Part shown: piece after piece, positions 24,722 through 52,524 of the stretch
How the letters are laid out: the number at the start of each line of letters is the position of its first letter
Numbering within the stretch: position 1 is the first letter of the stretch
Source: Neocallimastix lanati (nom. inval.)
Taxonomy: Eukaryota > Neocallimastigomycota > Neocallimastigomycetes > Neocallimastigales > Neocallimastigaceae
Length of the DNA: 64,000 nucleotides
Assembly: GCA_016946835.1 (NCBI GenBank)
Contig: JACVTC010000010.1
Span: forward strand, 62,001-126,000
Direction of reading: 5' to 3'
Notes under the pieces: model-generated
Databases searched by the model: none
The model's input: only the letters and a program-made list of their open reading frames with translations
What the model was told of the DNA's origin: nothing
Program-made: the position numbers and the translations under genes

Positions 24722-24865
24722 TGGGACGTAATGCTCTATATTAATTATTTTTATTATATTTTATTTATTTTTATTTTATTTTATTAATATTATTATTTTT
24801 TTTTTTTTGATTAGGTTATTTTCTTAAATTTAAGAAATTTATATTTTTCTGAACGTAACGTTCCA
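24722..24865 (-). repeat. Element 1 3' LTR, 144 bp
   Basis: It runs TGGGACGTAATGCTC to CGTAACGTTCCA and is followed on the right by the purine-tract complement GACGTCCCCTCTTAAGAG. This is unusually short for a Ty3-type LTR, but both ends are defined by the second copy at 29973. Confidence 0.85.
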
Positions 24866-24915
24866 AGACGTCCCCTCTTAAGAGTAGACTTCGTCCCTTG
24901 AAGTCCTTTAATTGG

Positions 24916-27900
24916 TTATAATTCCAAAAAATAGGGAATTACGTTCTTTAAGTGTATATTTCTTTCAGCAATTTCCCCAGATATCGGGTAACAGACAGTA
25001 ACGGTGTTGAACTCCTTTTTTATTATTTTTAAAGGTCCGGTAAAGTATGGATCTAACTTTCTTCTATTGAAAACCTTGACTAATACTAGATCCCCTGGTT
25101 TATAATCCGAACGCAATCTTCTTATTTGTTTACGGCGGTCACTCCATAGTTTATTTGCAGTCTCGATATTTTCTACTGTTTCTTTGATCCACTTTATGAA
25201 TTTCTGGAGCCAATATTCTTCTTCCTTTTCATATTTATTCCTACTTTCCTTATTTAATGTTAGTTCCAATGGTTGTAGATCTTGGCGTCCATACAATAGT
25301 TCGAAACTACTAAACTTTGTTCTTTCATTTTTGCATGTCCTCAAGGCCCACAAAGCACTGGGTAGAATCTCATCCCAATCATCTTCTTCGTTGGCTAATA
25401 ATTTTAAATACTTAATGACTTCCTTGTTCCTGTTTTCGACTTCTCCATTGGTCGAGGGGTGGTACGTAGTTGCATAATTTACGTAAACATCATGGAGATC
25501 CAAAAAAACTTTGGTCTTATCTGAGTAGAACTGTGGCCCATTATCTGTAATCAACAGCTCAGGAACCCCATGACGAGCAAATACTTTTTTTAAAAATCTT
25601 ATTACATCATTTGAACCAATTTCCTTTAATGGTTCAGCTTCCACCCATTTAGTTAAATAGTCCACTAAGACTATTATATATTTGTTCCCAGCTCTTGTCT
25701 TTGGTAACGGTCCAACAAGATCCAATCCGACTCTGGAGAATGGGTATCCCGGCTTGGTTGGTAAGTTTTCTACATTTTCATTTTGCTTTTGGCGTTTATA
25801 CATTTGGCATTTTGGGCAGCATCTAATATAGGTTTGGATTTCTCTATTCATTCCTTTCCAATAATAATTGGGTTTCAACCGATAGTATGTTTTATAAATA
25901 CCTTCGTGACCTATGGCATGAGCAGCTTCAATCAACTTTAACTTTTCTTCTTCGTTGTCAACTATTTTCCTAAGTCTTCCGTTTTGTTTATAATATTTCT
26001 TTCCTTCTATTTCGACGATTCTACTCTTGATAAAATCTTCAATATTTTGCGAGACGAGTACCACTTCATTACCTTTCTTCTCCAATTCTTCTATTTTTTT
26101 CATAGTGTCCATCCTGGACAGAGCATCGGCAATAACATTCTTCCTTCCCTCCTCAAATTGAACCTTAACCTGAAGAGCACTTAACGTAGTTACCCACTTT
26201 AAATGGCGGTTATTAGAGGGCTCCGTATTATTGCAGATTCCAACTAGGAGTTTGTGATCGGTCACCAATGAAGTAACTAAGTTATTTCCTAAAATATAAT
26301 GTTTAAATTTCTTTATGCAGTATAATGCTGCAGTTCCCTCCAAATCGGTAACACTATAGTTAGTTTCAGCCTTCCGTAGCGCTCTACTAACATAATGAAT
26401 TGGTTTCTCAACTCCATTATCATCCTTTTGTATGATGACGCCTCCAATTCCACTGCGAGATGCATCGCTTCTTATAATGAATGGTTTATTAAAATCCGGT
26501 GGTATTAGTATAGGAGCCTGTATTAATCTTTCTTTGAGAGTCTTAAAAGCTAAGTCGGATTCTTTAGTCCACTCAAATTTTGAATCTTTCTTTAACAACT
26601 GAAAAAGTGGACTGGCAATTTGGGCAAAGTCCTTAATAAACTTTCGATAATACCCAACTGCTCCTAGAAATGAACGAAGTTTAGATACATCTTTTGGAGG
26701 GATCCAATTATATATAACATTCACCTTTTCAGGAATTGGTTGTACACCTTTGGTAGATAAGAAGTGACCTAACAATTCCACTTCTTCTTGAAAGAAATGG
26801 CATTTTTCCAAGTTCAACTTCAATCCGTTATCTTGTAGTATGGTGAAAACCTCGCTAAGATCCTTAACATGCTGTTCATAAAAAGGAGAGAAAACAACCA
26901 AGTCGTCAATGTAAACAAAAACACTCTTACCAATTAAGCTAAAAAAAATCCTATTCATCTCCCTTTGGAAAGGTTGCGGGAGCGTTACACAACCCAAAGG
27001 GCATGACCTTAAAGTTATAATTTCCATAAAGTGTTGTGAAACAAGTTATCTCTTGATCTTCCGGGTACATTGGCACTTGGTGGTAACCCGAAAATAGATC
27101 AATAGTTGATAGAACTTGATTCCTTCCAATGTAACTTAGGATATCGTCAATGAGAGGTAGAGCGTATGCATCCTTTTCTGTTAAACTGTTAACTCTCCGG
27201 TAGTCCACGCACATCCTATATTGACCATTTTTCTTTAAAACTAACACTACGGGAGAGGACCAAGGAGAGTGGGAAGGTTCTATCAGGCCATTGTATATCA
27301 ATTTTTCTAACTCTTTCTTTAACGCTTGAGCCTGAATCTTCGATAAACGGTATGCCCGCTGTTTAACTGGCTTGCTTCCTGGTTTGAGTATGATCCTGTG
27401 TGGTAGAAGTTTGGTTGGTTTCAAGTCGTCTGCTTTCATGGCCAAAATGTCTTTAAAATCTTCGAACAGCTTGGTAGCTGGATCCTTAACCACTTTTGGG
27501 ATTAAATTAATAATTTTCTCAGCACGAGTTTCCTTATTATCCAATGACTCTTCATTTGCTGTAATCAGGGACACGGTTATATTTACTGGTTTACTTGTAT
27601 CTACTTCTTCCACTTCTTCTGAGGTCTCATTATTTTCGTCGTCAGCATTTAAACGTAAATCGTAATAAATTGGTGCAAGTCTTATTGGGAAATTATTTTT
27701 ATCAGTAGTATACAACGTATCATCATTAAAGTTTAGTATTAATTTATGTTTCTTAAGTGAATCTACCCCAATTAATAATTCAAATAGATCGTCCTTTTCA
27801 ATAACTCTGAAATAATCTTTAAAAGTTAAAAGTTACTGGTCCTATAGAGATCTCTAGTTCATAGATATCGGAAGACATAGTAGTATTGATATATGCTTGT

Positions 27901-28481
27901 AATATCATTTCGGTGATGTTTCCAACTGGCTTTTTGTTTATTTTATACTTCTTCAAAGCAGCACGAGTAACCATATTAATACTAGCACAAGAGTCCAGAA
28001 AGATTTCGCCATTTTGTCCTTCTATTTGCCCATAAACTTTTGAGATTTTATTTTCACTTATTACATTTACTGCATTAGTGATCACACTTTCCTTGGTAAT
28101 TGTTTTTGATGTTGTTTTTGGCTTTAACTTTAATTTCTTCTGGAAAGCTGAACGAAACTTTGGAAAGAGATCAAATAAATGGACTAATTTGGTACCAACT
28201 TCAGTGTCGGCTACCTTATCCACTAGGTCCTCTATTAGATATTCTTCAAACCCGTCCATCAAGCGGATGTGACGTTCTAGATTCGTCACCCTTTCAGCCA
28301 GGTCTTGTTCTTTATCTTCATTCAGGCTACCTTCTCTTAGTTCTTTCAGCCTCTCCTCTTTATTACTTCGTTTAACGGGTTCTATTCTTTTCTCGGCTAA
28401 ATAAGACAAATCTAATTGATCTAACCGAGAAGTATTAGCAATTTTAGTTACTTGTTCTGGCTCCCCTGGATTCATTTCCAT
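24916..28481 (-). pseudogene. Element 1 pol (protease-RT-RNase H-integrase), fossil
   Basis: This carries the complete domain order of a Ty3/gypsy Pol without a chromodomain: protease, reverse transcriptase, RNase H, and integrase ending in the GPY/F-type motif DPYFTGPLKII. The reverse transcriptase has MPFGLCNAPATF and the YIDD catalytic box. The integrase has the HxxxH..CxxC zinc site and the aspartate/glutamate blocks (GLDLVGPLP, TDNGPQF, NGEVENRNKE). The region is broken in a few places and is treated as a fossil. Confidence 0.85.
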
Positions 28482-28837
28482 ATCTACTGATTCCCTGTTC
28501 TCCGCTAAGTCGTTGGAGTTCCCTTGTTGGTTGGTAATAGCGTTGACATTTTCCTTCTTCTTAGCTTTTGTATTTTAAATTTTTTCTTGTTGTTGTGGTT
28601 GTGAATTATAAACCATAGCAGGGGTTGATATAGGCACTGGATTTTCTTTTAAATCAGAGTTATTTATTGACCTTGGTTTAGCATAGGGAGTATTTCTCTG
28701 GTTTCTAGGGATGTTCTTCTTTATTGCTGGAATAACGACTTCGGCATGTGCATTTGTAGTATGGACTTGGTCATTCAGCTCTTGATTAGATGCAAGTATG
28801 CTGGTTTGTTTACTGGAAGTTTTCCTTCTCCCATCTT

Positions 28838-29830
28838 CTAATTTAAAAGTCCCTTTTCTTTCATTTCCGCTAGATCTTTGAAGGTATAGGGACATTCTGG
28901 TGACTTATGACCAAGTTGATTACATCTAAAGCACCTAAAAGTACTAGATTTCTTGGAAAGCTCATCTTTAGCTTCTTGATCGTTAGTATCCAATGTTACT
29001 CTTTTCGGAATAGTTTTAAAATAGATTTGTTTCTTGTCTGTCCTCAGGTTGCCCATAAATCTTCTATCCGAAATTGGATTTGGCTTAGAATAATAATTTC
29101 TTGGTTGATATCTTCGATTACTATTCCTATTGTAACCAAAAGGGGTTTTTATATATCTTAACTCATCCTTGTATTTGTAATTATCTTCCTTATCTATGAA
29201 ATTCTGGTATATAGTGTGGCTAGTCATATAACTTCTGTTTTGCGTAACCATGGTAGCGTTTCTTGAGCTCTTTTTCTTCTTTAGTTGTAATTCCTCATTT
29301 CTTTCTTGAATTTCTTTTTCGGTAGTTTCCGCAAGCTCAGCGATTTTATATGCTTCCTGTAAAGTATCTACCTTGGCAATAGACACTTGAGAACACGGAA
29401 AAACCCTAGAGCTAATGGAATCCTTGTATTCTTTAACGGTAATTAACTTTTGGTAGTCCCGATTAAGATTGTGATATAATTTTTTGTAACGGTGGTTAAA
29501 CTGTTTTAATGACTCACCTTCTGCAATCATTAAGTTTCGTAAAATGGCCCATTTATCACCCTCTGTTATTTCTAGATAGCTTTCTACCACTTTTTGAATT
29601 TCGCTGAACTTGGGATAACGTTCTTCTCCATTTCTCCGAATAGCTAATGCTTTAACGGCGTCTTTAACATCATCTTCTACAGCAGCAAGTACCCAAATGA
29701 ATACCTTCTTTGGTTCTGTAATATCATAAAGAAGAAGGTATTCCTTAAGATCATCCACCCATTCGAGAACATTTTTCCCATAATCTTCTAAGCGTGGGAG
29801 TTCTCTATTGATTTTAGCAGCATCCAACAT
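28838..29830 (-). CDS. gag: Element 1 Gag, nucleocapsid CCHC
   Basis: An uninterrupted 330-residue Gag-like frame of the Ty3/gypsy type. The capsid-like part has the retrotransposon Gag pattern (GESLKQFNHRYKKLYHNL, then LQEAYKIAELAETTEKE). The C-terminus has the zinc knuckle CFRCNQLGHKSPECPY (CX2CX4HX4C), which binds element RNA. It sits first after the primer-binding site, as expected. Confidence 0.85.
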   Translation of the reverse strand: MLDAAKINRELPRLEDYGKNVLEWVDDLKEYLLLYDITEPKKVFIWVLAAVEDDVKDAVKALAIRRNGEERYPKFSEIQKVVESYLEITEGDKWAILRNLMIAEGESLKQFNHRYKKLYHNLNRDYQKLITVKEYKDSISSRVFPCSQVSIAKVDTLQEAYKIAELAETTEKEIQERNEELQLKKKKSSRNATMVTQNRSYMTSHTIYQNFIDKEDNYKYKDELRYIKTPFGYNRNSNRRYQPRNYYSKPNPISDRRFMGNLRTDKKQIYFKTIPKRVTLDTNDQEAKDELSKKSSTFRCFRCNQLGHKSPECPYTFKDLAEMKEKGLLN

Positions 29831-29948
29831 AGTGTATTATTAAGTTTATGTTTAACAATATATATATATTTTTTTTATATAAATATTTTATAACAAGTTA
29901 TATATATAATTTTTTTTTATAATGATTTATAATGTTTCATAGAGCATA

Positions 29949-29966
29949 CGCCCGGATTCTCCACCA
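29949..29966 (-). other. Element 1 primer-binding site
   Basis: On the plus strand it reads CGCCCGGATTCTCCACCA, that is, the 3' end of a tRNA including CCA. On the element's strand it starts TGGTGGAGAATCC, six bases after the 5' LTR. The same 18 bases occur in element 2. I could not name the primer tRNA; it is not the neighbouring tRNA-Thr. Confidence 0.75.
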
Positions 29967-29972
29967 GAAATT

Positions 29973-30113
29973 CGGGACGTAATGCTCTATATTAATTAAT
30001 TTTATAATATTTTATTTATTTTTATTTTATTTTATTAATTTTATTATTTTTTTTTTGATTAGGTTATTTTCTTAAATTTAAGAAATTTATATTTTTCTGA
30101 ATGTATCGTTCCA
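29973..30113 (-). repeat. Element 1 5' LTR, 141 bp
   Basis: It matches 24722-24865 along its length with about six substitutions and T-run differences. It ends ..CGTTCCA. Directly after it come TAA and the solo LTR of family 2. Confidence 0.85.
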
Positions 30114-30116
30114 TAA

Positions 30117-31765
30117 TGATACGGGCTGGGGTTGAAACACTAAGATATTCAAAACAAAAAAAAAATAAATATTAACACATAACTATAAAAATAAATTTGG
30201 AAACAAGAAAAAAAATTAAATTTTAAAATATTCTTTATTTAAATTTAAAATTAAAATTATTTGTTCCCAGTATTAAAAAGAAAGAAATTTATTCTTCTTT
30301 TTATACTTTTATTTTAATACATTTTATTTATTATTAATATATTCTTTATAAAAAAAAACTATTATAACTATTTTATTTTAATTTTTAACTATTATTTTAA
30401 ATTATTTTTTTAAAAAAAAAAATAACATTTATTAAATTAAAATATAAAAAATTAATTTAGAGATTGTATCACGAAGGGCATTCCGGGCGGTAGCTTCTTC
30501 TTGATATTGTTTTTCAGAGAGAGAATTATACAGAATTGATATTTTCTGTATTTTAGATCATTTTTTTTATTATTGAAATTCTGTATTTTAGTTCATTTTT
30601 ATTTTTAATAAAGATTTAATTTATTTTTGATTTTTGATTTATTTTTAGTTTATTTCAAAGGTTTAGAAAATATTATACAGAAACTTATAATTCTGTATTT
30701 TATATCAAATATTTATTGAAATAGGTTTTTATTATTCTTAATATAAAAACAGGAATTAGTAATGATTTTAATATTATATAATTTTTAATAAGAATATTTA
30801 GTAATAATTATTATTATATTTAATATTAATAAAATATTTAATAATAATTTTTATTAGATTTAATATTAATAAAAGAATATTTAATAAGAATATTTAATAA
30901 TAATTTTCATTATATTTAATATTAATAAAAGAAAATTATAAGAATATTTAATAATAATTTTATTTTATTATTATTAATGTTGAAATTACAACTGAATTAA
31001 ATTTCAATTTCAATTAATTTCAATTAATACTATTAAAAACAAAATAATTAATAAAAATTTATAATTCATTAATTATTCTTTAAATTTTATTTATTTTATA
31101 ATATTATAAGTTATTTGATCATCTTAGGACCAGCTTAGGCCTACTGATTCTAATGATATCATATTAAGCTTAAATATTATTAATAAATAAAATATTTATT
31201 CAACATGAATCATTTGGTCATGTCATCCTTGATTCATAAATTAATGTTTATGTATTAATTTATGTTATATTGATTTAATTAATTATTAATTATTAATTAC
31301 TATATTAAATATTTAAATTTAATATTATATTATATATATTAGCTAATATATTAGATTAAAAAATATTATTTATTTATATTAAACATATTCTTATACTAAA
31401 TATTATTATTATCAACTTTATATTATTATTATCAATATTCTCAAACCTACAAAGTATAAAAAGAAAATTCAAATTTATCTTTTTGTTCTTTGTAAGGTTA
31501 TAGTTAACCTATTATAATATAACTATATATTTTTATTAATAAATAAAAATTTTTTATCATATCAAACCAATTATTAGTTTTAATTAAGTGTTAAATTAAC
31601 AAATTTAACTTTATAACTCTTTTATTTTAGTAATTTACTTATATCTATATAGCTATATTATATAGATATATCAACCTGATTCCTCGTTAAATTCAATCTG
31701 TCTACTTTTTAACAATTAAGAGTATTTAATAGGAAATACAAGGTATTTAGTGACACCCCGTATCA
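30117..31765 (-). mobile_element. Solo LTR of the element 2 family (LTR A), carrying a nested LTR
   Basis: It starts TGATACGGGCTGGGG and ends ACACCCCGTATCA, the same termini as both LTRs of element 2. It is about 907 bp once the nested 30978-31714 insertion and its duplicated 5 bp are taken out. Several base differences separate it from both element 2 LTRs, which agree with each other, so it is an independent insertion and not a part of element 2. It is flanked by ATAA on both sides (30113-30116 and 31766-31769). Internal-region loss by LTR-LTR recombination is the usual origin of such solo LTRs. Confidence 0.85.
30978..31714. mobile_element. Nested solo LTR E inside LTR A, 737 bp
   Basis: A block absent from both other LTRs of the family. 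It begins TGTTGAAATTACAAC and ends CTTTTTAACA, giving TGTT/AACA termini, and is flanked by ATTAA on both sides (30973-30977 and 31715-31719). Removing it and one ATTAA restores the sequence found in LTRs 31770-33333 and 42054-44519. The TGTT..AACA ends are like those of the copia LTR at 22830, so a copia origin is possible, but the sequences are not alike overall. Confidence 0.82.
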
Positions 31766-31769
31766 ATAA

Positions 31770-33333
31770 TGATACGGGCTGGGGTTGAAACACTAAGATA
31801 TTCAAAACAAAAAAAAAAATAAATATTAACACATAACTATAAAAATAAGTTTGGAAACAAGAAAAAAAAATTAAATTTTAAAATATTCTTTATTTAAATT
31901 TAAAATTAAAATTATTTGTTCCCAGTATTAAAAAGAAAGAAATTTATTCTTCTTTTTATACTTTTATTTTAATACATTTTATTTATTATTAATATATTCT
32001 TTATAAAAAAAAAAACTATTATAACTATTTTATTTTAATTTTTAACTATTATTTTAAATTATTTTTTAAAAAAAAAAAATAACATTTATTAAATTAAAAT
32101 ATAAAAAATTAATTTAGAGCTTGTATCACGAAGGGCATTCCGGGCGGTAGCTTCTTCTTGATATTGTTTTTCAGAGAGAGAATTATACAGAATTGATATT
32201 TTCTGTATTTTAGATCATTTTTTTTATTATTGAAATTCTGTATTTTAGTTCATTTTTATTTTTAATAAAGATTTAATTTATTTTTGATTTTTGATTTATT
32301 TTTAGTTTATTTCAAAGGTTTAGAAAATATTATACAGAAACTTATAATTCTGTATTTTATATCAAATATTTATTGAAATAGGTTTTTATTATTCTTAATA
32401 TAAAAATAGGAATTAGTAATGATTTAAATATTATATAATTTTTAATAAGAATATTTAGTAATAATTATTATTATATTTAATATTAATAAAATATTTAATA
32501 ATAATTTTTATTAGATTTGATATTAATAAATGATTTTAATAAGAATATTTAATAATAATTTTTATTAGATTTAATATTAATAAAAGAATATTTAATAAGA
32601 ATATTTAATAATAATTTTTATTATATTTGATATTAATAAAAGATTTTAATAAGAATATTTAATAATAATTTTTATTATATTTAATATTAATAAAAGAATT
32701 TTATAAGAATATTTAATAATAATTTTTATTATATTTAATATTAATAAAAGATTTTTTATTAGAATATTTAATAATAATTTTTATTATATTTAATATTAAT
32801 AAAAGATTTTTTATTAGAATATTTAATAATAATTTTTATTATATTTAATATTAATAAAAGATTTTTTATTAGAATATTTAATAATAATTTTTATTAGATT
32901 TGATATTAATAAAAGCATTTTATAAGAATATTTAATAATAATTTTTATTATATTTAATATTAATAAAAGAATTTTATAAGAATATTTAATAATAATTTTT
33001 ATTATATTTAATATTAATAAAAGATTTTTTATTAGAATATTTAATAATAATTTTTATTATATTTAATATTAATAAAAGATTTTTTATTAGAATATTTAAT
33101 AATAATTTTTATTAGATTTGATATTAATAAAAGCATTTTATAAGAATATTTAATAATAATTTTTATTATATTTAATATTAATAAAAGAAATTTATAAGAA
33201 TATTTAATAATAATTTTTATTATATTTGATATTAATAAAAGATTTTAATAAGAATATTTAATAATAATTTTATTTTATTATTATTAAGAGTATTTAATAG
33301 GAAATACAAGATATTTAGTGACACCCCGTATCA
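31770..33333 (-). repeat. Element 2 3' LTR, 1564 bp
   Basis: TGATACGGG..CCCGTATCA termini. The first 650 bp are nearly the same as in the partner LTR. From about 32420 to 33290 it is an array of roughly 50-60 bp units (core GAATATTTAATAATAATTTT) with about 15 copies. Confidence 0.9.
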
Positions 33334-33345
33334 TAATCTCCCCGC

Positions 33346-40266: not shown

Positions 40267-40457
40267 AGAAAGAACACAAAAGAACACAAAATTGCTTAAA
40301 TAGAAACGAATATAAAAAAAATTTTTTTTTTTTTTTTATATGGATATATATATATTTTTTTTTATTTATTTTATTTAAAATATAGTTTTATAAAGAAATT
40401 TATTTTCTAATATTTATATATATATATAGATTTTAACAAAAAAAAATGATAAAGAAA

Positions 40458-40511
<54 letters not shown>

Positions 40512-41707: not shown

Positions 41708-41742
<35 letters not shown>

Positions 41743-42025
41743 TATTATTATTATTTTTATTATTATTATAAGTAAAAATAAATGTTTTATTATAACAAAT
41801 AAAATTTACGAATTAAGTTTCATAAAAAAAAATTTTTTTTTTTTTTTTTTTTTTTTTGTATAAAATTTGTGTAACTAAGTAAAAAAAATTAAATAATTTT
41901 TCCAAAAAAAAAATTAAAGTTTTATAAATTTTATATTCCCTATAACAAAATAATAAGTTTAAATAAAAAAAATTATATGTTTAATATTTATTCTAAGGTT
42001 TCTTTTCATCTTATAATGTGTTTCA
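40267..42025 (-). other. Element 2 long 5' leader
   Basis: About 1.8 kb between gag and the primer-binding site, very long for a Ty3-type leader. It contains several T runs of 20-45 bases, a duplicated 130-bp segment (AAAGAACACAAAA..ATAGAAACGAA near 40267 and 40570), and a more complex stretch at 41035-41650 with no open frame. It may hold packaging or dimerisation signals, but none can be identified. Confidence 0.55.
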
Positions 42026-42045
42026 GGCGCCCGGATTCTCCACCA
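42026..42045 (-). other. Element 2 primer-binding site
   Basis: The plus-strand sequence GGCGCCCGGATTCTCCACCA is identical over 18 bases to the element 1 site. It lies eight bases from the 5' LTR, a longer gap than the usual zero to three. Confidence 0.75.
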
Positions 42046-42053
42046 AATTTTTA

Positions 42054-44519
42054 TGATACGGGCTAGGGTTGAAACACTAAGATATTCAAAACAAAAAAAA
42101 AAATAAATATTAACACATAACTATAAAAATAAGTTTGGAAACAAGAAAAAAAAATTAAATTTTAAAATATTCTTTATTTAAATTTAAAATTAAAATTATT
42201 TGTTCCCAGTATTAAAAAGAAAGAAATTTATTCTTCTTTTTATACTTTTATTTTAATACATTTTATTTATTATTAATATATTCTTTATAAAAAAAAACTA
42301 TTATAACTATTTTATTTTAATTTTTAACTATTATTTTAAATTATTTTTTAAAAAAAAAAAAAATAACATTTATTAAATTAAAATATAAAAAATTAATTTA
42401 GAGCTTGTATCACGAAGGGCATTCCGGGCGGTAGCTTCTTCTTGATATTGTTTTTCAGAGAGAGAATTATACAGAATTGATATTTTCTGTATTTTAGATC
42501 ATTTTTTTTATTATTGAAATTCTGTATTTTAGTTCATTTTTATTTTTAATAAAGATTTAATTTATTTTTGATTTTTGATTTATTTTTAGTTTATTTCAAA
42601 GGTTTAGAAAATATTATACAGAAACTTATAATTCTGTATTTTATATCAAATATTTATTGAAATAGGTTTTTATTATTCTTAATATAAAAATAGGAATTAG
42701 TAATGATTTAAATATTATATAATTTTTAATAAGAATATTTAGTAATAATTATTATTATATTTAATATTAATAAAATATTTAATAATAATTTTTATTAGAT
42801 TTGATATTAATAAATGATTTTAATAAGAATATTTAATAATAATTTTTATTAGATTTAATATTAATAAAAGAATATTTAATAAGAATATTTAATAATAATT
42901 TTTATTATATTTGATATTAATAAAAGATTTTAATAAGAATATTTAATAATAATTTTTATTATATTTAATATTAATAAAAGAATTTTATAAGAATATTTAA
43001 TAATAATTTTTATTATAAAAGATTTTAATAAGAATATTTAATAATAATTTTTATTATAAAAGATTTTAATAAGAATATTTAATAATAATTTTTATTATAT
43101 TTAATATTAATAAAAGAAATTTATAAGAATATTTAATAATAATTTTTATTATATTTAATATTAATAAAAGATTTTTTATTAGAATATTTAATAATAATTT
43201 TTATTAGATTTGATATTAATAAAAGCATTTTATAAGAATATTTAATAATAATTTTTATTATATTTAATATTAATAAAAGAATTTTATAAGAATATTTAAT
43301 AATAATTTTTATTATAAAAGATTTTAATAAGAAGATTTAATAATAATTTTTATTATATTTGATATTAATAAAAGATTTTAATAAGAATATTTAATAATAA
43401 TTTTTTATTAGATTTGATATTAATAAAAGAAATTTATAAGAATATTTAATAATAATTTTTATTATATTTAATATTAACAAAAGAATTTTATAAGAATATT
43501 TAATAATAATTTTTATTATAAAAGATTTTAATAAGAAGATTTAATAATAATTTTTATTATATTTGATATTAATAAAAGATTTTAATAAGAATATTTAATA
43601 ATAATTTTTTATTAGATTTGATATTAATAAAAGAAATTTATAAGAATATTTAATAATAATTTTTATTATATTTAATATTAACAAAAGAATTTTATAAGAA
43701 TATTTAATAATAATTTTTATTATAAAAGATTTTAATAAGAAGATTTAATAATAATTTTTATTATATTTGATATTAATAAAAGATTTTAATAAGAATATTT
43801 AATAATAATTTTTTATTAGATTTGATATTAATAAAAGAAATTTATAAGAATATTTAATAATAATTTTTATTATATTTAATATTAACAAAAGAATTTTATA
43901 AGAATATTTAATAATAATTTTTATTATAAAAGATTTTAATAAGAAGATTTAATAATAATTTTTATTATATTTGATATTAATAAAAGATTTTAATAAGAAT
44001 ATTTAATAATAATTTTTTATTAGATTTGATATTAATAAAAGAAATTTATAAGAATATTTAATAATAATTTTTAATTTTTATTATATTTAATATTAATAAA
44101 AGAATTTTATAAGAATATTTAATAATAATTTTTATTATATTTGATATTAATAAAAGATTTTAATAAGAATATTTAATAATAATTTTTTATTAGATTTGAT
44201 ATTAATAAAAGAAATTTATAAGAATATTTAATAATAATTTTTATTATATTTAATATTAATAAAAGAATTTTATAAGAATATTTAATAATAATTTTTATTA
44301 TATTTAATATTAATAAAAGAAATTTATAAGAATATTTAATAATAATTTTTATTATATTTAATATTAATAAAAGAAATTTATAAGAATATTTAATAATAAT
44401 TTTTATTATATTTGATATTAATAAAAGATTTTAATAAGAATATTTAATAATAATTTTATTTTATTATTATTAAGAGTATTTAATAGGAAATACAAGATAT
44501 TTAGTGACACCCCGTATCA
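42054..44519 (-). repeat. Element 2 5' LTR, 2466 bp, with expanded array
   Basis: It has the same termini and first 650 bp as the 3' LTR (one substitution seen apart from homopolymer length). The repeat array runs from about 42680 to 44460 and is about 900 bp longer than in the partner. It includes a higher-order unit of about 230 bp that occurs roughly four times between 43310 and 44050. Confidence 0.9.
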
Positions 44520-44522
44520 ATA

Positions 44523-45539
44523 TGTAATAATTTAATTAAAAGATTATAATTAAATTATTAATCATTAATATTAGCTCTAACTGCTAATATTAAAGGTTTA
44601 GAAAAGAATCATACTTACCTATGGTTCTTTCTAATTATCGAGTTTATTATAACGAATTATAATAGACGAAACACTATATTGATAAGGAAAAGTTTTAATT
44701 ATAAAATTTGTTTTATTAAAATAATTTGTTTTATTTTTTATTAAAAATTTTAAATGTTAAAACTTATTGTTATTATTATTATATTATAATTGCTATAATA
44801 ATAACTCTTGATTTCTCAAAGAGAACTCAAGAGCCTTATTTATACTTTTTTGTCAAAATAAAGTTAAAATCAAAAGGGGTTCTAATCTTAACAAATCTCT
44901 TATCTAGGAAAAGACTAGAAGAAAAACCTAGATAAGTTTTTTGATCGATATTCTATCCATATCGATCATCGCGTTAATTAAGTAAAACCGATTACTTTTA
45001 AGAAGTAATTGGAAAAACCTTAATTAACCGATTACTTAATCTAATATAATGATCGAAAATAAAAGAATAAAATAATGAAAATTATTTCGATCATAAAATT
45101 TAAAATTTAATCTATTTAGTTCTATTTTATAGAACTTTACATAAAAAATATAAAACAATACATTAATAATAAAATACATGATTAATACAATACAGAATAC
45201 ATGATAGAATACAGAATACATGATAGAATACAGAATACATGATAAAATACAGAATAGTGTTTTAGTTTATGATTTAATAAGTGAGAGAAAACTAAAATTA
45301 ATAAATTTAATAATTAAGTGAATAATTAAATAAAGTTAATATTATTTTAAATGTATAAAAATTATTTGATTAAATAAATTTTTAATATTAAACTAAATAA
45401 AATTTTAATATATAATTAAATAAATTATTAATTATAATTAATTGTATAAATGAAATATGAGTTAAATAAAAGTTATATTAATTATAACCTAACTAAGAAA
45501 ATATAATTATTTTGTTAAAAATAATTATAGATTCTTACA
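44523..45539. mobile_element. Solo LTR D of another family, 1017 bp
   Basis: It begins TGTAATAATTTAATT and ends ATTCTTACA, giving TGTAA/TTACA termini, and is flanked by CAATA on both sides (44518-44522 and 45540-45544). The left CAATA includes the last two bases of the element 2 LTR, so it inserted exactly across that LTR edge and is younger than element 2. No coding sequence. Around 45185-45257 it holds three to four copies of a 21-bp unit (GAATACATGATAGAATACA). Nothing else in the window resembles it. Confidence 0.8.
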
Positions 45540-45547
45540 CAATAAAA

Positions 45548-46283
45548 TGACAAACGATTCTATTATCTTAATTTGAAGTTATTACTTCAAAAGTGATAAT
45601 AGATGTATCAAGTTTGAATTAATATAAATTTAATATGAATGAATTTATGTTATTATTATTAATAATTAAGTTATTATTATTCTAGCTTAACACTGAATTG
45701 TTATTAATTTTTCAAAATTATACATTTCTTTTGTGTTTAGAATTAATTTTTATTATTATATTTATTAATTTTTATTATTATTTATTAATTTTTATTATTA
45801 TTTATTATTATAATATTTGGTTATTATTTTTTTTATTACATTTCTAATAACAACGAGAAATTAATTTTATAAAATATTTACAAGTATTTATATTTTTACA
45901 ATAATTTAAAGTATTTACAATTTTTAATAATAAAATAATTAAGAATAATTATATTTATAAAAATAAACAATAAAATAAACAAATAAACAATTAATACAAG
46001 AATTATTATAAACAAAGAATTCAAAATAATAAAAAAAAAGAGAAAATTGTTTACAAACTATTTACTTTTAATTAAAAAGAGAAATTAATTAACATTAATA
46101 TTTCATTATTTTAAAAATTAAAATAGAATTAAAGTATAATTTCGAGTTTTAGAATTTAATTAAAATAAATCTTTTTATTATGATTTTAATTTCAAATTTT
46201 AATTTATTAATTTGTTGTTGAATAGGTTAGATATTATTCAAGCTTTCTAATAATTTTATGCTTAAGAATTCCAATCTGTATCA
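45548..46283 (-). repeat. Element 3 3' LTR, 736 bp
   Basis: TG..CA termini. It contains a short TTATTAATTTTTATTATTA repeat near 45765-45810. It is followed by CGTCGGCCCTTAAGAG, whose complement is the purine-rich tract. Confidence 0.92.
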
Positions 46284-46295
46284 ATTCGTCGGCCC

Positions 46296-49200
46296 TTAAG
46301 AGATGACTTCGTCCCTTGAAGTCAAAGAATTTTCTTGAAGTACATATGGAAAAACATTTTTAATATGAACATTTCTATTTAAGAGTTTTCCAGTAGTTGG
46401 ATCTTCTAATACTAAGGTATTGAATTTTTGTTTATTAACAACTTTAAAAGGTCCGTAAAAGTAAGGATTTAATTTACTTCTTCCTATAAGTCTTATCATT
46501 ACGTAATCTCCTGGTTTATATTTCTTCTTTAGTGCATTTTGAAATCCAATACGGTGTTCCCAATATTTATTTGCATATTCTGAATATTCAGTAGCCTGTT
46601 TTACCCAATTTTGATGTCTTAAGAAACGTCGAAATATATATTCTTCTTCTGATTCATTTGGATCTTTGTAAATATCGGGGAACATGACTTCTAATGGCCA
46701 AGTGTCGTGTCTGCCATAAAGTAATTCGAAACTACTAAATTTTGTTTTTGAATTTTTAGTAGTTCTTAAGGCCCATAAAGCCGATGGAAGATATTCATCC
46801 CATTCAGACTCATTTTCTACTAATAATCTTAATAACTTCCCTATTTCTCTGTTTCGATTCTCAATCATTCCATTCGATTCAGGATGATGCGGGGAAACGT
46901 AATGAACCCATGAACCATAAAGGTCAATCATCATCTTTGTTACTTCAGAGATAAAGGAACTACCATTGTCGGTAATTATTATTTCAGGTGGTCCATGTCT
47001 TGTAAATATTTCAACAAGAAATTTTATTACTTCTTCGGATTTCATGTTCGGGATTGCTTTAGCTTCAACCCACTTGGTAAAATAATCGACTAAGGTTATT
47101 ATATAATTGTTACCATTTTTAGTAGTTGGTAACGGTCCTATTATATCGAGTCCTACTCTAGTAAATGGTTGTTCAACAGGGGTAGCATTATCTCCAGAAC
47201 TTTTTGGAAATGGTTTAGGCCTGCATGTTTGACATTTGTGACAACTTTTTATCCACATTCTTACATCATTCCAAATGCCAGGCCAATAGTAAGATTGCAT
47301 AATTCTATTAGTAGTTTTCTCTGCTCCTTCATGTCCTACTAAATGGGCACGATTAATAATATCCTTTTTGTCTTCATCTTTATAGATGACTTTTAAATAA
47401 AGATCATTTTTTTTATAATATAGAGTATTATCAACAACTTGATAATTCTTAGTGAAGTATTTTATTATACCTTCTGGTAGATCCAAATCCCTTGGATTAA
47501 AGTCGGCTAATATTGCATTAGCGCATTGAATAATTCCTTTTGAATTTTTAGAAGGTAATCTTGATAACGCATCAGCGAATACATTTTTCTTTCCTTTCTC
47601 GTAAATAAGTTCAATCTTATATTTGTTAAATTCTTCTATCCATCTTGCATGACGATTAGAAGTAGGAATACTTTTTTTGAAAAACCCAAGTAATGGTTTA
47701 TGATCCGTAATAAATTTTGTTAAATTTTTATTGCTTAATATATATTGACTAAAATATTTTAAACTAAATATAACAGCTAATCCTTCTAAGTCCGTTACGG
47801 AGTAATTCTTTTCAGATGTAGAGAGTGTTCTACTTACGCAACAGATAGGATGTTCAAGACTATCCTCTTCCTTCTGTAAAAGAACACCACCAATACCTTT
47901 AAGAGAAGCATCAGTACGAATGATGAATTCCTTTTTAAAATCTGGGTAACTTAATATTGGATCATTAAGTAAACATTCTTTAATATTTTCGAAAGCTTCT
48001 TCGCATTCATTTGACCATATATATTTTGAATTCTTTTTTAATAACTTAAAAAGAGGGTCAGCAATAACTGAGAAATTTTGAATAAATTTTCTATAATAAC
48101 TAGCTAAACCTAAAAAAGAACGAAGTTCACTTACATCTTTAGGATTGTCCCACAAAGCAATACTTTGTACTTTTGATGGAATTGTTTTTAATCCTTTTGA
48201 TGTTAGAACATGACCTAATACTTCAACACTTTCTTGAAAGAATTTACATTTTTGTAAGTTAAGAGAAAGATTGTATTTAGAAAATATTTCAAAAGCTAAC
48301 TTTAAATGTTTAAGATGTTCATCAAGAGTTCTTGAATAAATTACAATATCATCTAAGTAAACAAATAAACATTTACCGATTAAAGGAAGTAATATTCTAT
48401 TCATCTCCCGTTGGAAGGTAGCGGGAGCATTGGTAAGGCCAAATGGCATTACTTTAAAATTGTAATTGCCGAATTTTGTGGTAAATGCTGTTTTCTCTAT
48501 ATCTTCTGGATTCATTGGAATTTGATGATATCCAGAATATAAGTCTAATGCGGAGAATACCGTCGCACCATTTACTGAATAAATTAGTTCATCTATAAAT
48601 GGTAGTGCGTAAGAATCTTTTATAGTAATTTCATTTAATTTGCGATAATCAATACACATTCTCCATTTCCCATTTTTCTTTTGAACTAATAGAACAGGAA
48701 AAGACCATGGAGAATGTGAAGGAACTATAAGTCCTTTTTCTAATAGTTTAATTATTTCCGATTTAAGAATATCTGCATGCTCTTTTGATAATTTGTATGG
48801 TTTTAATTTTATAGGTTTATTACTAATTGTCACAATTGAATGTGGTTCTAAATTAGCTGTACTTAATTGTGACATTGAAGTTGCCATACAGTTTTTATAC
48901 TTCTCAATTAAATTTTTAAATTCTGTCTTAAATTTTTCCGGGACAGATTCAATAATTTTATTTAATGTATCGATGAACTCTTGTTGTTCATCTTTTTCTA
49001 TAATAATGGAATTAACAAGAGGTATTTCTGATTTACTATTAATTATATAAGTTACTTGTTTAATTCCTTTCTTAATTTTCTGGTAGACAGCATCATCATC
49101 TGGATCTATATACAAACGATACTTTTTCTGAATTCCTCTACCAAATATAATTTCAAAATATGGATTCGTATAATTAATTACATAGAATTTTTCTGTAATA

Positions 49201-49718
49201 GTTAATCTATTATTTACGTTTATTTTTAATTCAATGTAACTATTTGTAGTTACTTTAGTACCATCCACAATGGTAATATCTTCTAAATTTTCACATTGTT
49301 TAATTACTTTATGTTTTAGTTTGCCTAGACAATTATTTGTTATAACATTAACGTTTGCACCGGTATCGTATAAGATTTTAAATGTCTTATTATCTATTTC
49401 ACCACAAATAATAGGAAGACTTGTATTAGTTAAGGAACAAAGAATTTTCTCAACTCTTGGTTTACAACCTTGTTCAAGTTCTTTTCTAATGGACGGACTT
49501 GCAGATAATAATTGAGATAAACTAATTTTTGGAAAAAGGTTATTAGCTTCTTCAGTTATACTAAACTTTTCATTTTCATTTAACATTTGGATATTGGTCA
49601 TTTTTCTTTTCTTAATAGTTTTTGGTTTTTCTGATTCTTTTTCATTATTACTTTCAATATATGAGGCTCCATTAATCTCATTTTCATTGCTATTTTCTTC
49701 TTCATTAACTTCCATCAC
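46296..49718 (-). CDS. pol: Element 3 Pol (protease, RT, RNase H, integrase)
   Basis: 1140 residues from the first in-frame Met; the open frame continues upstream towards gag. Domains are: aspartic protease with YDTGANVNVIT (Asp118); reverse transcriptase with MPFGLTNAPATF and the catalytic YLDDIVIYS near 455; RNase H with RTDASLKGIGGVL near 600; and integrase with HxxxH..CxxC near 790-830, then GLDIIGPLP, TDNGSSF and NGMIENRNRE for the D,D,E triad near 859, 914 and 952. It ends with the GPY/F motif NPYFYGPFKVV and a short tail. There is no chromodomain, so it is not a chromovirus. Gag and Pol lie in different frames, and such elements commonly make Gag-Pol by programmed frameshifting. Confidence 0.93.
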   Translation of the reverse strand: MMEVNEEENSNENEINGASYIESNNEKESEKPKTIKKRKMTNIQMLNENEKFSITEEANNLFPKISLSQLLSASPSIRKELEQGCKPRVEKILCSLTNTSLPIICGEIDNKTFKILYDTGANVNVITNNCLGKLKHKVIKQCENLEDITIVDGTKVTTNSYIELKINVNNRLTITEKFYVINYTNPYFEIIFGRGIQKKYRLYIDPDDDAVYQKIKKGIKQVTYIINSKSEIPLVNSIIIEKDEQQEFIDTLNKIIESVPEKFKTEFKNLIEKYKNCMATSMSQLSTANLEPHSIVTISNKPIKLKPYKLSKEHADILKSEIIKLLEKGLIVPSHSPWSFPVLLVQKKNGKWRMCIDYRKLNEITIKDSYALPFIDELIYSVNGATVFSALDLYSGYHQIPMNPEDIEKTAFTTKFGNYNFKVMPFGLTNAPATFQREMNRILLPLIGKCLFVYLDDIVIYSRTLDEHLKHLKLAFEIFSKYNLSLNLQKCKFFQESVEVLGHVLTSKGLKTIPSKVQSIALWDNPKDVSELRSFLGLASYYRKFIQNFSVIADPLFKLLKKNSKYIWSNECEEAFENIKECLLNDPILSYPDFKKEFIIRTDASLKGIGGVLLQKEEDSLEHPICCVSRTLSTSEKNYSVTDLEGLAVIFSLKYFSQYILSNKNLTKFITDHKPLLGFFKKSIPTSNRHARWIEEFNKYKIELIYEKGKKNVFADALSRLPSKNSKGIIQCANAILADFNPRDLDLPEGIIKYFTKNYQVVDNTLYYKKNDLYLKVIYKDEDKKDIINRAHLVGHEGAEKTTNRIMQSYYWPGIWNDVRMWIKSCHKCQTCRPKPFPKSSGDNATPVEQPFTRVGLDIIGPLPTTKNGNNYIITLVDYFTKWVEAKAIPNMKSEEVIKFLVEIFTRHGPPEIIITDNGSSFISEVTKMMIDLYGSWVHYVSPHHPESNGMIENRNREIGKLLRLLVENESEWDEYLPSALWALRTTKNSKTKFSSFELLYGRHDTWPLEVMFPDIYKDPNESEEEYIFRRFLRHQNWVKQATEYSEYANKYWEHRIGFQNALKKKYKPGDYVMIRLIGRSKLNPYFYGPFKVVNKQKFNTLVLEDPTTGKLLNRNVHIKNVFPYVLQENSLTSRDEVIS

Positions 49719-50056
49719 TATATCATCACTAGTATTTGGTTCATTTTCTTCAGAATTGCTAAGCTTTCTTCTTCTAGCATCTTTAATTACTTTCTTTTGT
49801 TGTTTTACTAATTTTGTTTTGGGTTCACTTAATAATGAAGGCTTTACTATAGATTTGTTATTTAATTTTCTTGTCGAAGTTTTTCTCTTTTGTACTGTAC
49901 CGATAAAGTTTGAAGAATTTCTTTCAATATTACTTTCTTCTTTAGTGAAATTTTCTTTGTCATTTTCACTTCTTTCGAAATTATTTTCATTTTCATTTTC
50001 ATTTTCATTTTCATTTGCAATTTTAATTGTCCTGGGAGATTGCGTACTCCCGATTA

Positions 50057-51025
50057 TTAATTTAAATGGCTTTCGTCGTTTTCAGGGCAATCATTCATTT
50101 TGTGACCAATTCGTTTACATTGTACACAAAAATTTATTTTTAATTGTTCTAATTTTTTTGTAATGTCATCTAAATCTTCTATTGTTGATTGAGGGTACCT
50201 TAAAGTGTTCATTCTATGTTCAATTCCTTTGTTTATTTCTTCTCTTGATTGCATTTTATACCTATTATTTCTTATATTGTTATTATAGTTATCATTATGT
50301 TTATTTTTATTATCGTAACGATTATAATTATTATTATTGTTGTTATATTGCTTATTATTCGATCTGGAATTTGAAGTTGAAAAATAATCATTTCTATAAT
50401 TATAATTGTTATAATTATTATTATAATTTTTAGATTCATTGAAATCTTTTATTTCTTTCTTGTTAACTCCGTGTAATTTTTTATATTTATTTTTATTTTC
50501 TTCCATTAAAGCAATAATTTTTCCTTTCTTGGATGTTATTTTCATTGCATCCTGAAGTGAGGTTGGTTCCTCTTCTAATAAGGCTTCATAAATTTTACCC
50601 CAATTCTTAAAAGCATTAATATAATATGAAGTGATAACTTGGTCACTAATTTCTAAATTCACTTGATTACACAGGGTATTGAATCTTACATCAAATTCAG
50701 AAATTCTTTCCCCTTTTTTAATAGTGACTGTAGATAATTCCAATAATCTGGCATTTTTAGAGGTAGAGACTCTGAAATGTCCTCTTAATTTATTTATTAT
50801 AGTTTTGTAACTATCTGGTGCTTCTTTGTTTAATGAATTGAATACAATGGTTCTCGCTATATCTGTAGTTAAGGAGATTAAGTATTCAATTTTATCTTCT
50901 TCTTCTTCTATTTTATTAGCTTTACACCAGCGTTCATACGAAAAATGCCATTCCTCAAAGGAAACCTTATCCTTCCCTAATATAGGTAACCTATTAAAGG
51001 TTATTGCCTTGGTTGAATTTTCCAT
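50057..51025 (-). CDS. gag: Element 3 Gag with CCHC knuckle
   Basis: 322 residues starting MENSTKAITFNRLPILGKDK. A Ty3-type Gag domain spans about 20-180 (GERISEFDVRFNTLCNQVN, SLQDAMKITSKKGK). A Tyr/Asn/Arg-rich basic region follows at about 205-265, then the zinc knuckle CVQCKRIGHKMNDC near 300-313. The capsid-like part shares the pattern of the Gag proteins of elements 1 and 2 but is clearly divergent, so the three elements are separate families. Confidence 0.92.
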   Translation of the reverse strand: MENSTKAITFNRLPILGKDKVSFEEWHFSYERWCKANKIEEEEDKIEYLISLTTDIARTIVFNSLNKEAPDSYKTIINKLRGHFRVSTSKNARLLELSTVTIKKGERISEFDVRFNTLCNQVNLEISDQVITSYYINAFKNWGKIYEALLEEEPTSLQDAMKITSKKGKIIALMEENKNKYKKLHGVNKKEIKDFNESKNYNNNYNNYNYRNDYFSTSNSRSNNKQYNNNNNNYNRYDNKNKHNDNYNNNIRNNRYKMQSREEINKGIEHRMNTLRYPQSTIEDLDDITKKLEQLKINFCVQCKRIGHKMNDCPENDESHLN

Positions 51026-51149
51026 TATTATTATTATTTTATTTATAAATTTTAAAAAGAAACCTTACAATTTATATTTTCGCTTATCTTAATTTATGAA
51101 TTTATGAATTATTTTACTTATTTCTTTTTTATTTATTCTTGCAAAAAGA

Positions 51150-51215
<66 letters not shown>

Positions 51216-51583
51216 ATTCTTTCGACTGTAGATAGTAGTATTTGTATACAATTTTATTTTAATTAACACCTTTGCCTCACAACCATAAAAAAAACCGGCG
51301 GTGTTAATATAACAAAAAGGGAACAAGTAAACCCTTAAAAGAAAATTTTAAAACTATATATTTAATCTTAGACCTTCGGTGATCTAAGCGCATTAACCGT
51401 TGTTAACTCGTTTACTGCAACCTCACTCTGTTGAAGAGATATGGGATTAGATTACGTCTTTTATAGTAATCCTTTACGCAGTCTCTAACCAAATAGATTC
51501 GTCTAAACGAGTTGCAAATGAGCTTATTGAATACACTCAAAAACAACGTATAACCGAGTATTCTAACACTCGTCCTAATAATT

Positions 51584-51624
<41 letters not shown>

Positions 51625-51701
51625 CTACTTAAATCTACTTGAATAATTAAAATAGATATAACTTACTCGTATAGGAGTTATATCACTCACTCTCCACCAA
51701 T
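51026..51701 (-). other. Element 3 5' leader and primer-binding site
   Basis: It contains a T run of more than 50 bases at 51153-51210 and another at 51585-51621, so the transcript would carry long A runs. The primer-binding site is at 51686-51699, with the plus-strand end CTCTCCACCA, sharing only its last nine bases with the sites of elements 1 and 2. Confidence 0.7.
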
Positions 51702-52437
51702 TGACAAACGATTCTATTATCTTAATTTGAAGTTATTACTTCAAAAGTGATAATAGATGTATCAAGTTTGAATTAATATAAATTTAATATGAATGAATTT
51801 ATGTTATTATTATTAATAATTAAGTTATTATTATTCTAGCTTAACACTGAATTGTTATTAATTTTTCAAAATTATACATTTCTTTTGTGTTTAGAATTAA
51901 TTTTTATTATTATATTTATTAATTTTTATTATTATTTATTAATTTTTATTATTATTTATTATTATAATATTTGGTTATTATTTTTTTTATTACATTTCTA
52001 ATAACAACGAGAAATTAATTTTATAAAATATTTACAAGTATTTATATTTTTACAATAATTTAAAGTATTTACAATTTTTAATAACAAAATAATTAAGAAT
52101 AATTATATTTATAAAAATAAACAATAAAATAAACAAATAAACAATTAATACAAGAATTATTATAAACAAAGAATTCAAAATAATAAAAAAAAAGAGAAAA
52201 TTGTTTACAAACTATTTACTTTTAATTAAAAAGAGAAATTAATTAACATTAATATTTCATTATTTTAAAAATTAAAATAGAATTAAAGTATAATTTCGAG
52301 TTTTAGAATTTAATTAAAATAAATCTTTTTATTATGATTTTAATTTCAAATTTTAATTTATTAATTTGTTGTTGAATAGGTTAGATATTATTCAAGCTTT
52401 CTAATAATTTTATGCTTAAGAATTCCAATCTGTGTCA
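51702..52437 (-). repeat. Element 3 5' LTR, 736 bp
   Basis: It matches 45548-46283 base for base except about two substitutions (one near the middle at AATAACAAAAT, one in CTGTGTCA at the end). The right end is followed by AAAACTACAGGTAGT and then the tRNA. Confidence 0.92.
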
Positions 52438-52452
52438 AAAACTACAGGTAGT

Positions 52453-52524
52453 GCCTGTTTGGCTTAGTGGTAGAGCGTCGCTCTTGTAAAGCGAAGGTCG
52501 GTGGTTCGATTCCGTCAATAGGCA
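52453..52524 (+). tRNA. tRNA-Thr(UGU): tRNA-Thr (anticodon UGU), no intron
   Basis: It folds as a complete cloverleaf. The acceptor stem is GCCTGTT with AATAGGC (one G-U pair) and A73 as discriminator. The D stem is GCTT with GAGC. The anticodon stem is TCGCT with AGCGA around the loop CTTGTAA (anticodon TGT, reads ACA). The T stem is GGTGG with CCGTC around TTCGATT. The internal Pol III promoter is present: A box TGGCTTAGTGG and B box GGTTCGATTCC match the consensus. It is followed two bases later by a T8 run. The CCA is not encoded, as expected for a nuclear gene. Confidence 0.97.

What the first reader, a model, noticed from the sequence alone, without database searches (positions are those of the whole stretch)
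24722..52524. Five LTR insertions stacked in a 6-bp window just upstream of a tRNA gene
Seen directly: removing element 3 joins ..ATAAAA to AAAACTACAGG before tRNA-Thr. Removing solo LTR D, element 2 and solo LTR A in turn leaves the element 1 LTR end GTTCCA followed by TAAAACTACAGGTAGT and the tRNA. Removing element 1 leaves AAATTAAAACTACAGGTAGT and the tRNA. The five target sites are TAAAA, ATAA, ATAA, AAAA and the ATA part of CAATA; all fall between -17 and -12 of the mature tRNA 5' end. Known: yeast Ty3 integrates within a few bases of the Pol III start, about 16-19 bp before tRNA genes, guided by TFIIIB, and some Dictyostelium elements also favour tRNA upstream positions. Inference: several unrelated LTR families in this fungus use the same Pol III landmark. 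Such tRNA-guided targeting in gut fungi is, as far as I know, not described.
Basis: partly seen in the sequence, partly recalled or inferred. Interest (0 to 1): 0.92.

Follow-up and report, generated by a model that had tools for sequence, protein, structure and literature searches.

The report
Retrotransposon towers stacked before tRNA genes
In a gut fungus, jumping genes of many kinds sit about 15 letters in front of tRNA genes, each newer one between the last one and the gene, so that ordered towers of them seem to build up at this one spot.

Summary
The nest is real. Five insertions (E1, solo A, E2, solo D, E3) come out one by one with exact target duplications of 4-5 bp, all at -19 to -12 of tRNA-Thr.

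The pattern is wider. In samples from the 199-Mb genome, 45 of 63 first-in-unit tRNA genes carry an LTR-terminal pentamer 10-19 nt upstream (peak 15-16), against 0 of 12 later members of tRNA clusters and 2 of 50 on the 3' side. Of 90 outward-facing ends of four families, 9 face a tRNA or tRNA-like gene and 73 show an LTR-like start 2-8 nt away (controls 6-9 of 81).

Targeting of Pol III start sites is known from Ty3, Tj1 and DGLT-A. New here, as far as eight paper searches show: the host phylum, the number of LTR termini (54 clusters), two distant Ty3/gypsy groups at one site, a large genome, and integrases that stop after the SH3 domain and so lack the chromodomain with which Ty3 contacts Brf1. 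TFIIIB guidance is inferred.

The parts
24129..24718 (.). sixth, oldest LTR piece (family F), left edge uncertain; its end lies 14 nt from the mature tRNA once all later inserts are removed
   Evidence: 94% identity to a stretch in L172; the same terminus lies 2 and 4 nt from E2 ends in L141 and L145
24722..30113 (-). element E1, Ty3/gypsy, LTRs 24722-24865 and 29974-30113 (5 mismatches in 140; the inner base 29973 is C where the other copy has T), target duplication TAAAA
   Evidence: RT, RNase H, integrase domains
30117..31765 (.). solo LTR A (family of E2, with a different middle part), target duplication ATAA
31770..44519 (-). element E2, Ty3/gypsy, LTRs 31770-33333 and 42054-44519 (1 mismatch in 666 before the minisatellite), target duplication ATAA; pol frame holds a stop codon
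44523..45539 (.). solo LTR D, target duplication CAATA
   Evidence: 756 exact copies of its 21-nt right end in the genome
45548..52437 (-). element E3, Ty3/gypsy, LTRs 45548-46283 and 51702-52437 (2 mismatches in 736), target duplication AAAA
51684..51699 (-). primer-binding site of E3, complementary to the 3' end of tRNA-Trp plus CCA
   Evidence: tRNA-Trp in L100
46299..49718 (-). E3 protease-RT-RNase H-integrase frame (protease not tested); 12 nt lie between its stop codon and the 3' LTR, and no chromodomain follows the SH3 domain
50057..51025 (-). E3 gag-like frame with a CCHC-like motif (recognised by eye)
   Evidence: no Pfam match
52434..52441 (.). target window (-19 to -12) in present coordinates; bases 52438-52441 are the tRNA-side copy of E3's AAAA, the others were mapped onto it after removal of later inserts
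52453..52524 (+). tRNA-Thr(TGT) gene, box A TGGCTTAGTGG, box B GGTTCGATTCC, T-run after it

Best explanation
Many Ty3/gypsy LTR-retrotransposon families of this gut fungus insert at one landmark, the upstream edge of Pol III transcription units, most often 14-17 bp before the mature tRNA. SHOWN (in samples): the position and its precision, its use by many LTR termini, and the serial order at tRNA-Thr. INFERRED: the integrase is held by the initiation factor TFIIIB (TBP-Brf1-Bdp1), as in Ty3. Each insertion leaves the gene and its internal promoter intact, so the site is remade between the new element and the gene and can be hit again; older elements are pushed outwards and shrink to solo LTRs, giving an ordered tower. 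Because the integrases read here end just after the SH3 domain, docking would have to work without the C-terminal chromodomain that contacts Brf1 in Ty3, perhaps by the SH3 domain and TBP alone.
For: Exact nested duplications. Gap histogram peaking at 15-16 nt; 45 of 63 first tRNAs at 10-19 nt against 9, 8, 4 and 5 at 0-9, 20-29, 30-39 and 40-49 nt; 0 of 12 internal tRNAs; 2 of 50 downstream. The same LTR terminus at different tRNAs and in towers, for example ..GTACATTCTTATCA at Arg, Thr, Glu and Gly tRNAs and beside D and E3. LTR side: 9 of 90 outward ends face a tRNA or tRNA-like gene, 73 show an LTR-like start at 2-8 nt, controls 9, 7 and 6 of 81. A second tower (from E3 in L169) followed for 10.5 kb reaches tRNA-Ala with an LTR end 15 nt before it; L172 reaches tRNA-Cys, L171 a tRNA-like gene. 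Best PDB match of E3 pol and D pol is Ty3.
Against: No new insertion was observed; selection for harmless sites may add to the pattern. 18 of 63 first tRNAs miss the strict motif; several show a decayed end, others no LTR. The internal-tRNA control is weak: the spacers are 7-15 bp, so the 10-19 nt zone overlaps the preceding tRNA and inserts there would be harmful. SINE heads, which also carry boxes A and B, show the motif at 10-19 nt in 2 of 13, as at 20-29 nt; only one of the two (L060) is a known LTR end. U6 0 of 6, 5S 1 of 8. Of seven towers followed, four (L166, L167, L170 for 7 kb, L168 for 13 kb) showed no tRNA. Six of the nine Pol III-type neighbours are tRNA-like by eye only; Rfam gave nothing above cut-off for the five tested. 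The pentamer set and the TG motif were chosen after looking at LTR ends. The tRNA loci are not a random sample. The E3 integrase piece alone matches foamy-virus integrase better than Ty3.
Confidence: 0.8

Rival explanations
1. No targeting: insertion is near random, but copies elsewhere are purged, and the tRNA upstream zone is merely the safe place where they survive.
For: tRNA upstream regions tolerate inserts; only surviving copies are seen in one genome. The absence between clustered tRNAs would follow from selection too.
Against: Purging would leave a zone, not a peak at 15-16 nt. 82 of 90 sampled ends lie at a tRNA-type gene or beside an LTR-like start, although other harmless sites should exist.
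Confidence: 0.09
2. Elements recognise a DNA motif (short A-rich stretch) or the ends of older LTRs, not the Pol III complex; towers are nesting into LTR ends.
For: Target duplications are A/T-rich; 73 of 90 outward ends show an LTR-like start 2-8 nt away. Four of seven towers followed showed no tRNA within 7-13 kb.
Against: A-rich stretches abound (window 19.6% G+C), but the distance to the tRNA, not the sequence, is what is kept. In the window all five successive insertions chose the tRNA side. LTR ends lie next to tRNAs of many kinds with different spacers.
Confidence: 0.07
3. The repeats spread by duplication of tRNA-plus-LTR blocks or by gene conversion rather than by independent insertion.
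For: Some sampled loci are near-identical copies (L016/L017, L013/L014/L022), and 34 of the 63 tRNA matches lie on one stretch of contig C555.
Against: Identical upstream pieces were counted once. One LTR terminus occurs before different tRNAs with different spacers, and both ends of D are seen at tRNAs. Own target duplications were found in the window and for D in L012 (CACAA).
Confidence: 0.04

Closest known systems
Ty3 (Saccharomyces cerevisiae; Metaviridae)
   Same: Ty3/gypsy pol; insertion about 15 bp before the mature tRNA (PMC5006619, section 11 read); best PDB match for E3 and D pol (7q5b); SH3 C-terminal domain.
   Different: Ty3 integrase has a vestigial chromodomain after the SH3 domain that contacts Brf1 and target DNA (PMC8632968, section 8 and passages read); E3 and D end 20 and 9 residues after the part that aligns to Ty3, and E1 and three further relatives end alike. 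Ty3 has two full-length copies in S288C (PMC5911963, section 10); here D alone has 756 exact right ends. Large genome, towers.
Tj1 (Schizosaccharomyces japonicus)
   Same: LTR element related to Tf1/Tf2; of 17 new inserts in S. [quoted passage not shown]
   Different: Self-primed according to that abstract; E3 here has a site matching tRNA-Trp. Of ten families in that yeast only Tj1 was tested in the abstract.
DGLT-A (dictyostelid amoebae)
   Same: LTR element about 15 bp upstream of tRNA genes (PMC5006619, abstract and section 11 read).
   Different: Compact amoeba genomes; towers are not mentioned in the parts that I read.
Tyl3, Ylt1, Tyl6 (Yarrowia lipolytica), Tca8 beta LTR (Candida albicans)
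   Same: Ty3/gypsy elements near tRNA starts, three of them in one host (PMC5911963, section 11 with Table 1 read).
   Different: Ascomycete yeasts; one to three such Ty3/gypsy elements per host in that table.

Membership tests
Ty3/gypsy (Metaviridae) LTR retrotransposons | pol order RT - RNase H - integrase | tested here: met
   Pfam domains in that order in E1, E2, E3 and D
Ty3/gypsy (Metaviridae) LTR retrotransposons | LTRs with TG..CA ends, short target duplications, tRNA primer-binding site | tested here: met
   (inner end of one E1 LTR is CG); E3 site matches the 3' end of tRNA-Trp in L100. The E1/E2 primer tRNA was not identified
Pol III-start-targeted elements (Ty3, Tj1, DGLT-A type) | bp-precise position just upstream of Pol III genes, for existing copies | tested here: met
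   on samples
Pol III-start-targeted elements (Ty3, Tj1, DGLT-A type) | also hits other Pol III genes (5S, U6) | tested here: inconclusive
   5S 1 of 8 examined of 9 matches (L101..GTATCA 8 nt upstream), U6 0 of 6; TAACA occurs 8 and 6 nt before U6 in L104 and L105, whose upstream parts are alike, so it was read as native; L101's LTR family was not identified
Ty3 mechanism | vestigial chromodomain C-terminal to the SH3 domain of integrase | tested here: not met
   no Chromo match (the vestigial domain of Ty3 itself went long unnoticed, so this alone is weak); E3 and D align to 7q5b up to residues 1439 and 1447 of 1547 with 20 and 9 residues left; only 12, 50 and 9 nt lie between stop codon and LTR in E3, E1 and D; no fold after the SH3 strands in a low-confidence model
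Ty3 mechanism | integration depends on TFIIIB (TBP, Brf1) | not testable with these tools
   needs biochemistry; restriction to the first tRNA of a cluster fits it but also fits selection
Pol III-start-targeted elements (Ty3, Tj1, DGLT-A type) | new insertions show the preference | not testable with these tools
   one assembly only; no empty allele
Chromoviruses (chromodomain Ty3/gypsy, heterochromatin or Skipper-2 type) | chromodomain in integrase | tested here: not met
   D carries the SH3_Tf2-1 domain, so it may descend from that branch; no tree was built

The most novel reading that the evidence does not exclude
A whole guild of LTR families from at least two deep Ty3/gypsy branches in an anaerobic gut fungus shares one docking site at Pol III start points, with integrases that lack the chromodomain Ty3 uses; most tRNA genes are therefore the base of a growing, time-ordered tower of elements, and these towers make up a sizeable part of a 200-Mb fungal genome.
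Probability: 0.55. Interest if true: 0.82.

Novelty: new variant of a known kind. Interest (0 to 1): 0.7.

Why it matters
tRNA-gene targeting has been explained as a way for parasites to live in compact genomes (PMC5006619). Here it looks like the habit of many families at once in a 199-Mb genome. The towers are ordered records: the element nearest the gene is the newest, so insertion order can be read from position. Ty3 docking is described as resting on an SH3 domain (TBP) and a chromodomain (Brf1, target DNA); elements found at the same distance without the second part make it possible to ask which contact sets the position, a question that PMC5006619 raises for DGLT-A.

Tried and rejected
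A search for an allelic or paralogous empty site gave only the window itself. Rfam on the tRNA-like neighbours gave nothing above cut-off (one weak snoRNA match, E 0.035, in L075). Divergence as a clock along the tower: E1 (5 of 140) is oldest, but E2 (1 of 666) and E3 (2 of 736) cannot be told apart. Left edge of the sixth LTR: not found; its homology stops at 24129 next to a stretch with a copia-like RT motif. Target duplications elsewhere: of four copies looked at, D in L012 is exact, D in L003 has one mismatch, E3 in L005 is not exact, and E3 in L016 is the LTR of a longer element whose far end was not fetched. Structure model of E3 integrase: mean pLDDT 63.5, used only for the absence of a fold after the SH3 strands; no fold search was made. 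No phylogeny was built. PMC6875170 and PMC5796279 came up in searches; the passages seen hold nothing on this question. PMC7175516: passages only.

Full report
WHAT IS THERE. The window is part of contig C2 of a 199,045,447-base, 762-contig assembly. Its GH45 protein matches named gut fungi (Anaeromyces robustus 76%; Piromyces sp. E2 82% over 70% of the query), so the host most likely belongs to the Neocallimastigomycota. The only tRNA found in the window is tRNA-Thr(TGT), mature 52453-52524. Left of it lie E3, solo LTR D, E2, solo LTR A and E1. Removing them from the tRNA side outwards gives exact duplications AAAA, CAATA, ATAA, ATAA, TAAAA; one base more no longer matches in any. All sites fall at -19 to -12. 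For A, E2 and D part of the duplicated target is the end of the previous LTR or of its flank, which fixes the order: each element went in between the previous one and the gene. LTR divergence agrees for E1 (5 of 140) but does not separate E2 (1 of 666) from E3 (2 of 736). Left of E1 a further LTR piece (24129-24718) ends 14 nt from the tRNA when all else is removed, so at least six insertions are stacked. The three full elements have their 5' LTR towards the tRNA (genes on the minus strand).

tRNA SIDE. Loci were chosen by tRNA features, not by LTRs: 30 loci of the best Rfam tRNA matches (of 63 listed), 30 loci of the box-B pattern GGTTCGANTCC (855 matches against 23 for the reversed pattern, 100 listed), and short stretches at all 27 further listed sites that do not read GGTTCGAATCC (14, 13; the GGTTCGAATCC sites, mostly a SINE, were left out). 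After dropping repeated upstream sequences, 63 first-in-unit tRNA genes with nine anticodons and 12 tRNAs that follow another tRNA within 40 bp remained. An LTR-terminal pentamer ends 10-19 nt upstream in 45 of 63; in the 0-9, 20-29, 30-39 and 40-49 bins it does so in 9, 8, 4 and 5; for internal tRNAs in 0 of 12 (spacers 7-15 bp, so that zone overlaps the tRNA before); for the heads of a tRNA-derived SINE in 2 of 13 (also 2 of 13 at 20-29 nt); the reverse motif 10-19 nt downstream of the tRNA in 2 of 50. The single-base histogram peaks at 15 (15 cases) and 16 (10). Of the 18 misses several show what looks like a mutated end (for example L013 Arg, L026 Arg, L115, L117) and some show nothing LTR-like (for example L027, L178, L181). 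The pentamer set was taken from LTR ends already seen, so the test is of position, not of the motif itself. Among 110 terminal 24-mers there are 54 clusters at up to 5 mismatches, 20 of them with two or more members; each family has two ends and some loci are duplicates, so the number of families is smaller. A few of these 24-mers (for example L011/L024 Thr) may be native sequence.

LTR SIDE. Exact ends in the genome: E3 right 96 and left 82, D right 756, E2 right 305, E1 right 36. For each of these five ends I fetched 20 flanks, one per contig except for E1 (15 contigs), leaving out the window's own copies and, for D, E3 and E1, copies that pair spacing marked as inner LTRs. Ten of 100 still proved to be internal. 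Of the other 90, nine face a tRNA or tRNA-like gene (tRNA-Arg and -Trp by ARAGORN, tRNA-Thr masked after 12 nt, six tRNA-like by eye), 73 show TG[ATG][AT] at 2-8 nt, mostly 3-4 nt, and 8 are unclassified; the same motif at three other offsets occurs in 9, 7 and 6 of 81. For part of these flanks homology to other loci begins at or near that TG; for others no relative was in hand. Several of these termini are the ones found directly before tRNAs. Following seven towers further, three reached a tRNA-type gene (L172 tRNA-Cys, L169 tRNA-Ala at 10.5 kb with an LTR end 15 nt before it, L171 a tRNA-like gene) and four did not within 7 kb (L166, L167, L170) or 13 kb (L168). For E3, Pol III-type genes face the right end in 4 of 19 and the left end in 1 of 19, a hint of preferred orientation; both ends of D are seen at tRNAs.

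OTHER POL III GENES. Of nine 5S matches eight were examined: one (L101) has ..GTATCA 8 nt before the gene, seven have no such pentamer within 40 nt. Of six U6 matches none has an LTR that I could recognise; TAACA lies 8 and 6 nt before U6 in L104 and L105, whose upstream parts are alike (84% over 303 bp), so I read it as native.

HOW IT PROBABLY WORKS. E1, E2 and E3 share 46-59% pol identity; D is 31-40% from them and carries an SH3_Tf2-1 domain. E3 and D pol match Ty3 best among solved structures, though the E3 integrase piece alone matches foamy-virus integrase better. In Ty3 the SH3 domain touches TBP, and a vestigial chromodomain behind it touches Brf1 and target DNA (PMC8632968, section 8). 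Here pol stops right behind the SH3 domain: E3 aligns to Ty3 up to residue 1439 of 1547 with 20 residues left, D up to 1447 with 9 left; E1, L166, L167 and L171 end alike; 12, 50 and 9 nt lie between stop codon and LTR in E3, E1 and D. So the position is Ty3-like, but the part that PMC8632968 calls a ruler is missing in the copies read. I infer docking on TFIIIB by the SH3 domain or another integrase part. Restriction to the first tRNA of a cluster fits the start-site complex, but inserts between clustered tRNAs would also be selected against.

WHAT IS KNOWN. Ty3, Ty3p, Tj1, Tca8 beta, Tyl3, Ylt1, Tyl6 and DGLT-A insert a few bp to about 30 bp upstream of Pol III starts or mature tRNAs (PMC5911963, outline and sections 10, 11 and 13 read; PMC4600332 abstract; PMC5006619 abstract and section 11). 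Eight paper searches listed nothing on such targeting in gut fungi; most subscription papers, and preprints, are not in that library. Hence a new variant of a known kind, on an unusual scale.

Noticed in passing
L032, L038, L047, L179, L180, L190; also L075, L078, L079, L096, L130, L171, L194: Small tRNA-like genes with box A- and box B-like motifs, some with a T-run, not reported by ARAGORN; several have an LTR end close upstream (about 7-17 nt, by eye). Five were tested against Rfam without a match above cut-off.
   Followed up: partly
window 31770-33333 and 42054-44519: The two LTRs of E2 differ by 902 bp in length through an AT-rich minisatellite (units of about 54 bp) although their first 666 aligned bases differ at 1 site.
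   Followed up: partly
L031-L060: A tRNA-derived SINE (GCCATGTTGGTCC.., ending CACCA-AATAATCGG) makes up most box-B loci; a known LTR end lies 14 nt before it in L060 and a decayed one about 15 nt before it in L050 (by eye).
   Followed up: partly
L002, L003, L116, L118, L187: tRNA genes in tight head-to-tail clusters (Asn-Arg, Cys-Gly, Ser-Cys-Gly) with spacers of 7-15 bp; LTR ends were seen before the first member only.
   Followed up: yes
G000 contig C555, 170-399 kb: 34 of the 63 tRNA matches lie in this stretch, some about 540 bp apart; the six seen (L025-L030) are tRNA-Arg(TCT).
   Followed up: no
window 24060-24128: A copia-like reverse transcriptase motif (reads YVDDM on the minus strand, by eye) directly left of the sixth LTR.
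   Followed up: no
window 51684-51699: The E3 primer-binding site matches the 3' end of tRNA-Trp (L100); E1 and E2 share another site (TGGTGGAGAATCCGGGCG) whose tRNA was not identified.
   Followed up: partly
L041: An LTR-like end lies inside the 5' part of a tRNA-Thr gene, replacing its first bases: a rare miss or a pseudogene (by eye).
   Followed up: no
window 18932-19906 and 55481-57889: Host genes beside the nest: a GH45 cellulase and a pyruvate formate-lyase with its glycine-radical domain.
   Followed up: partly
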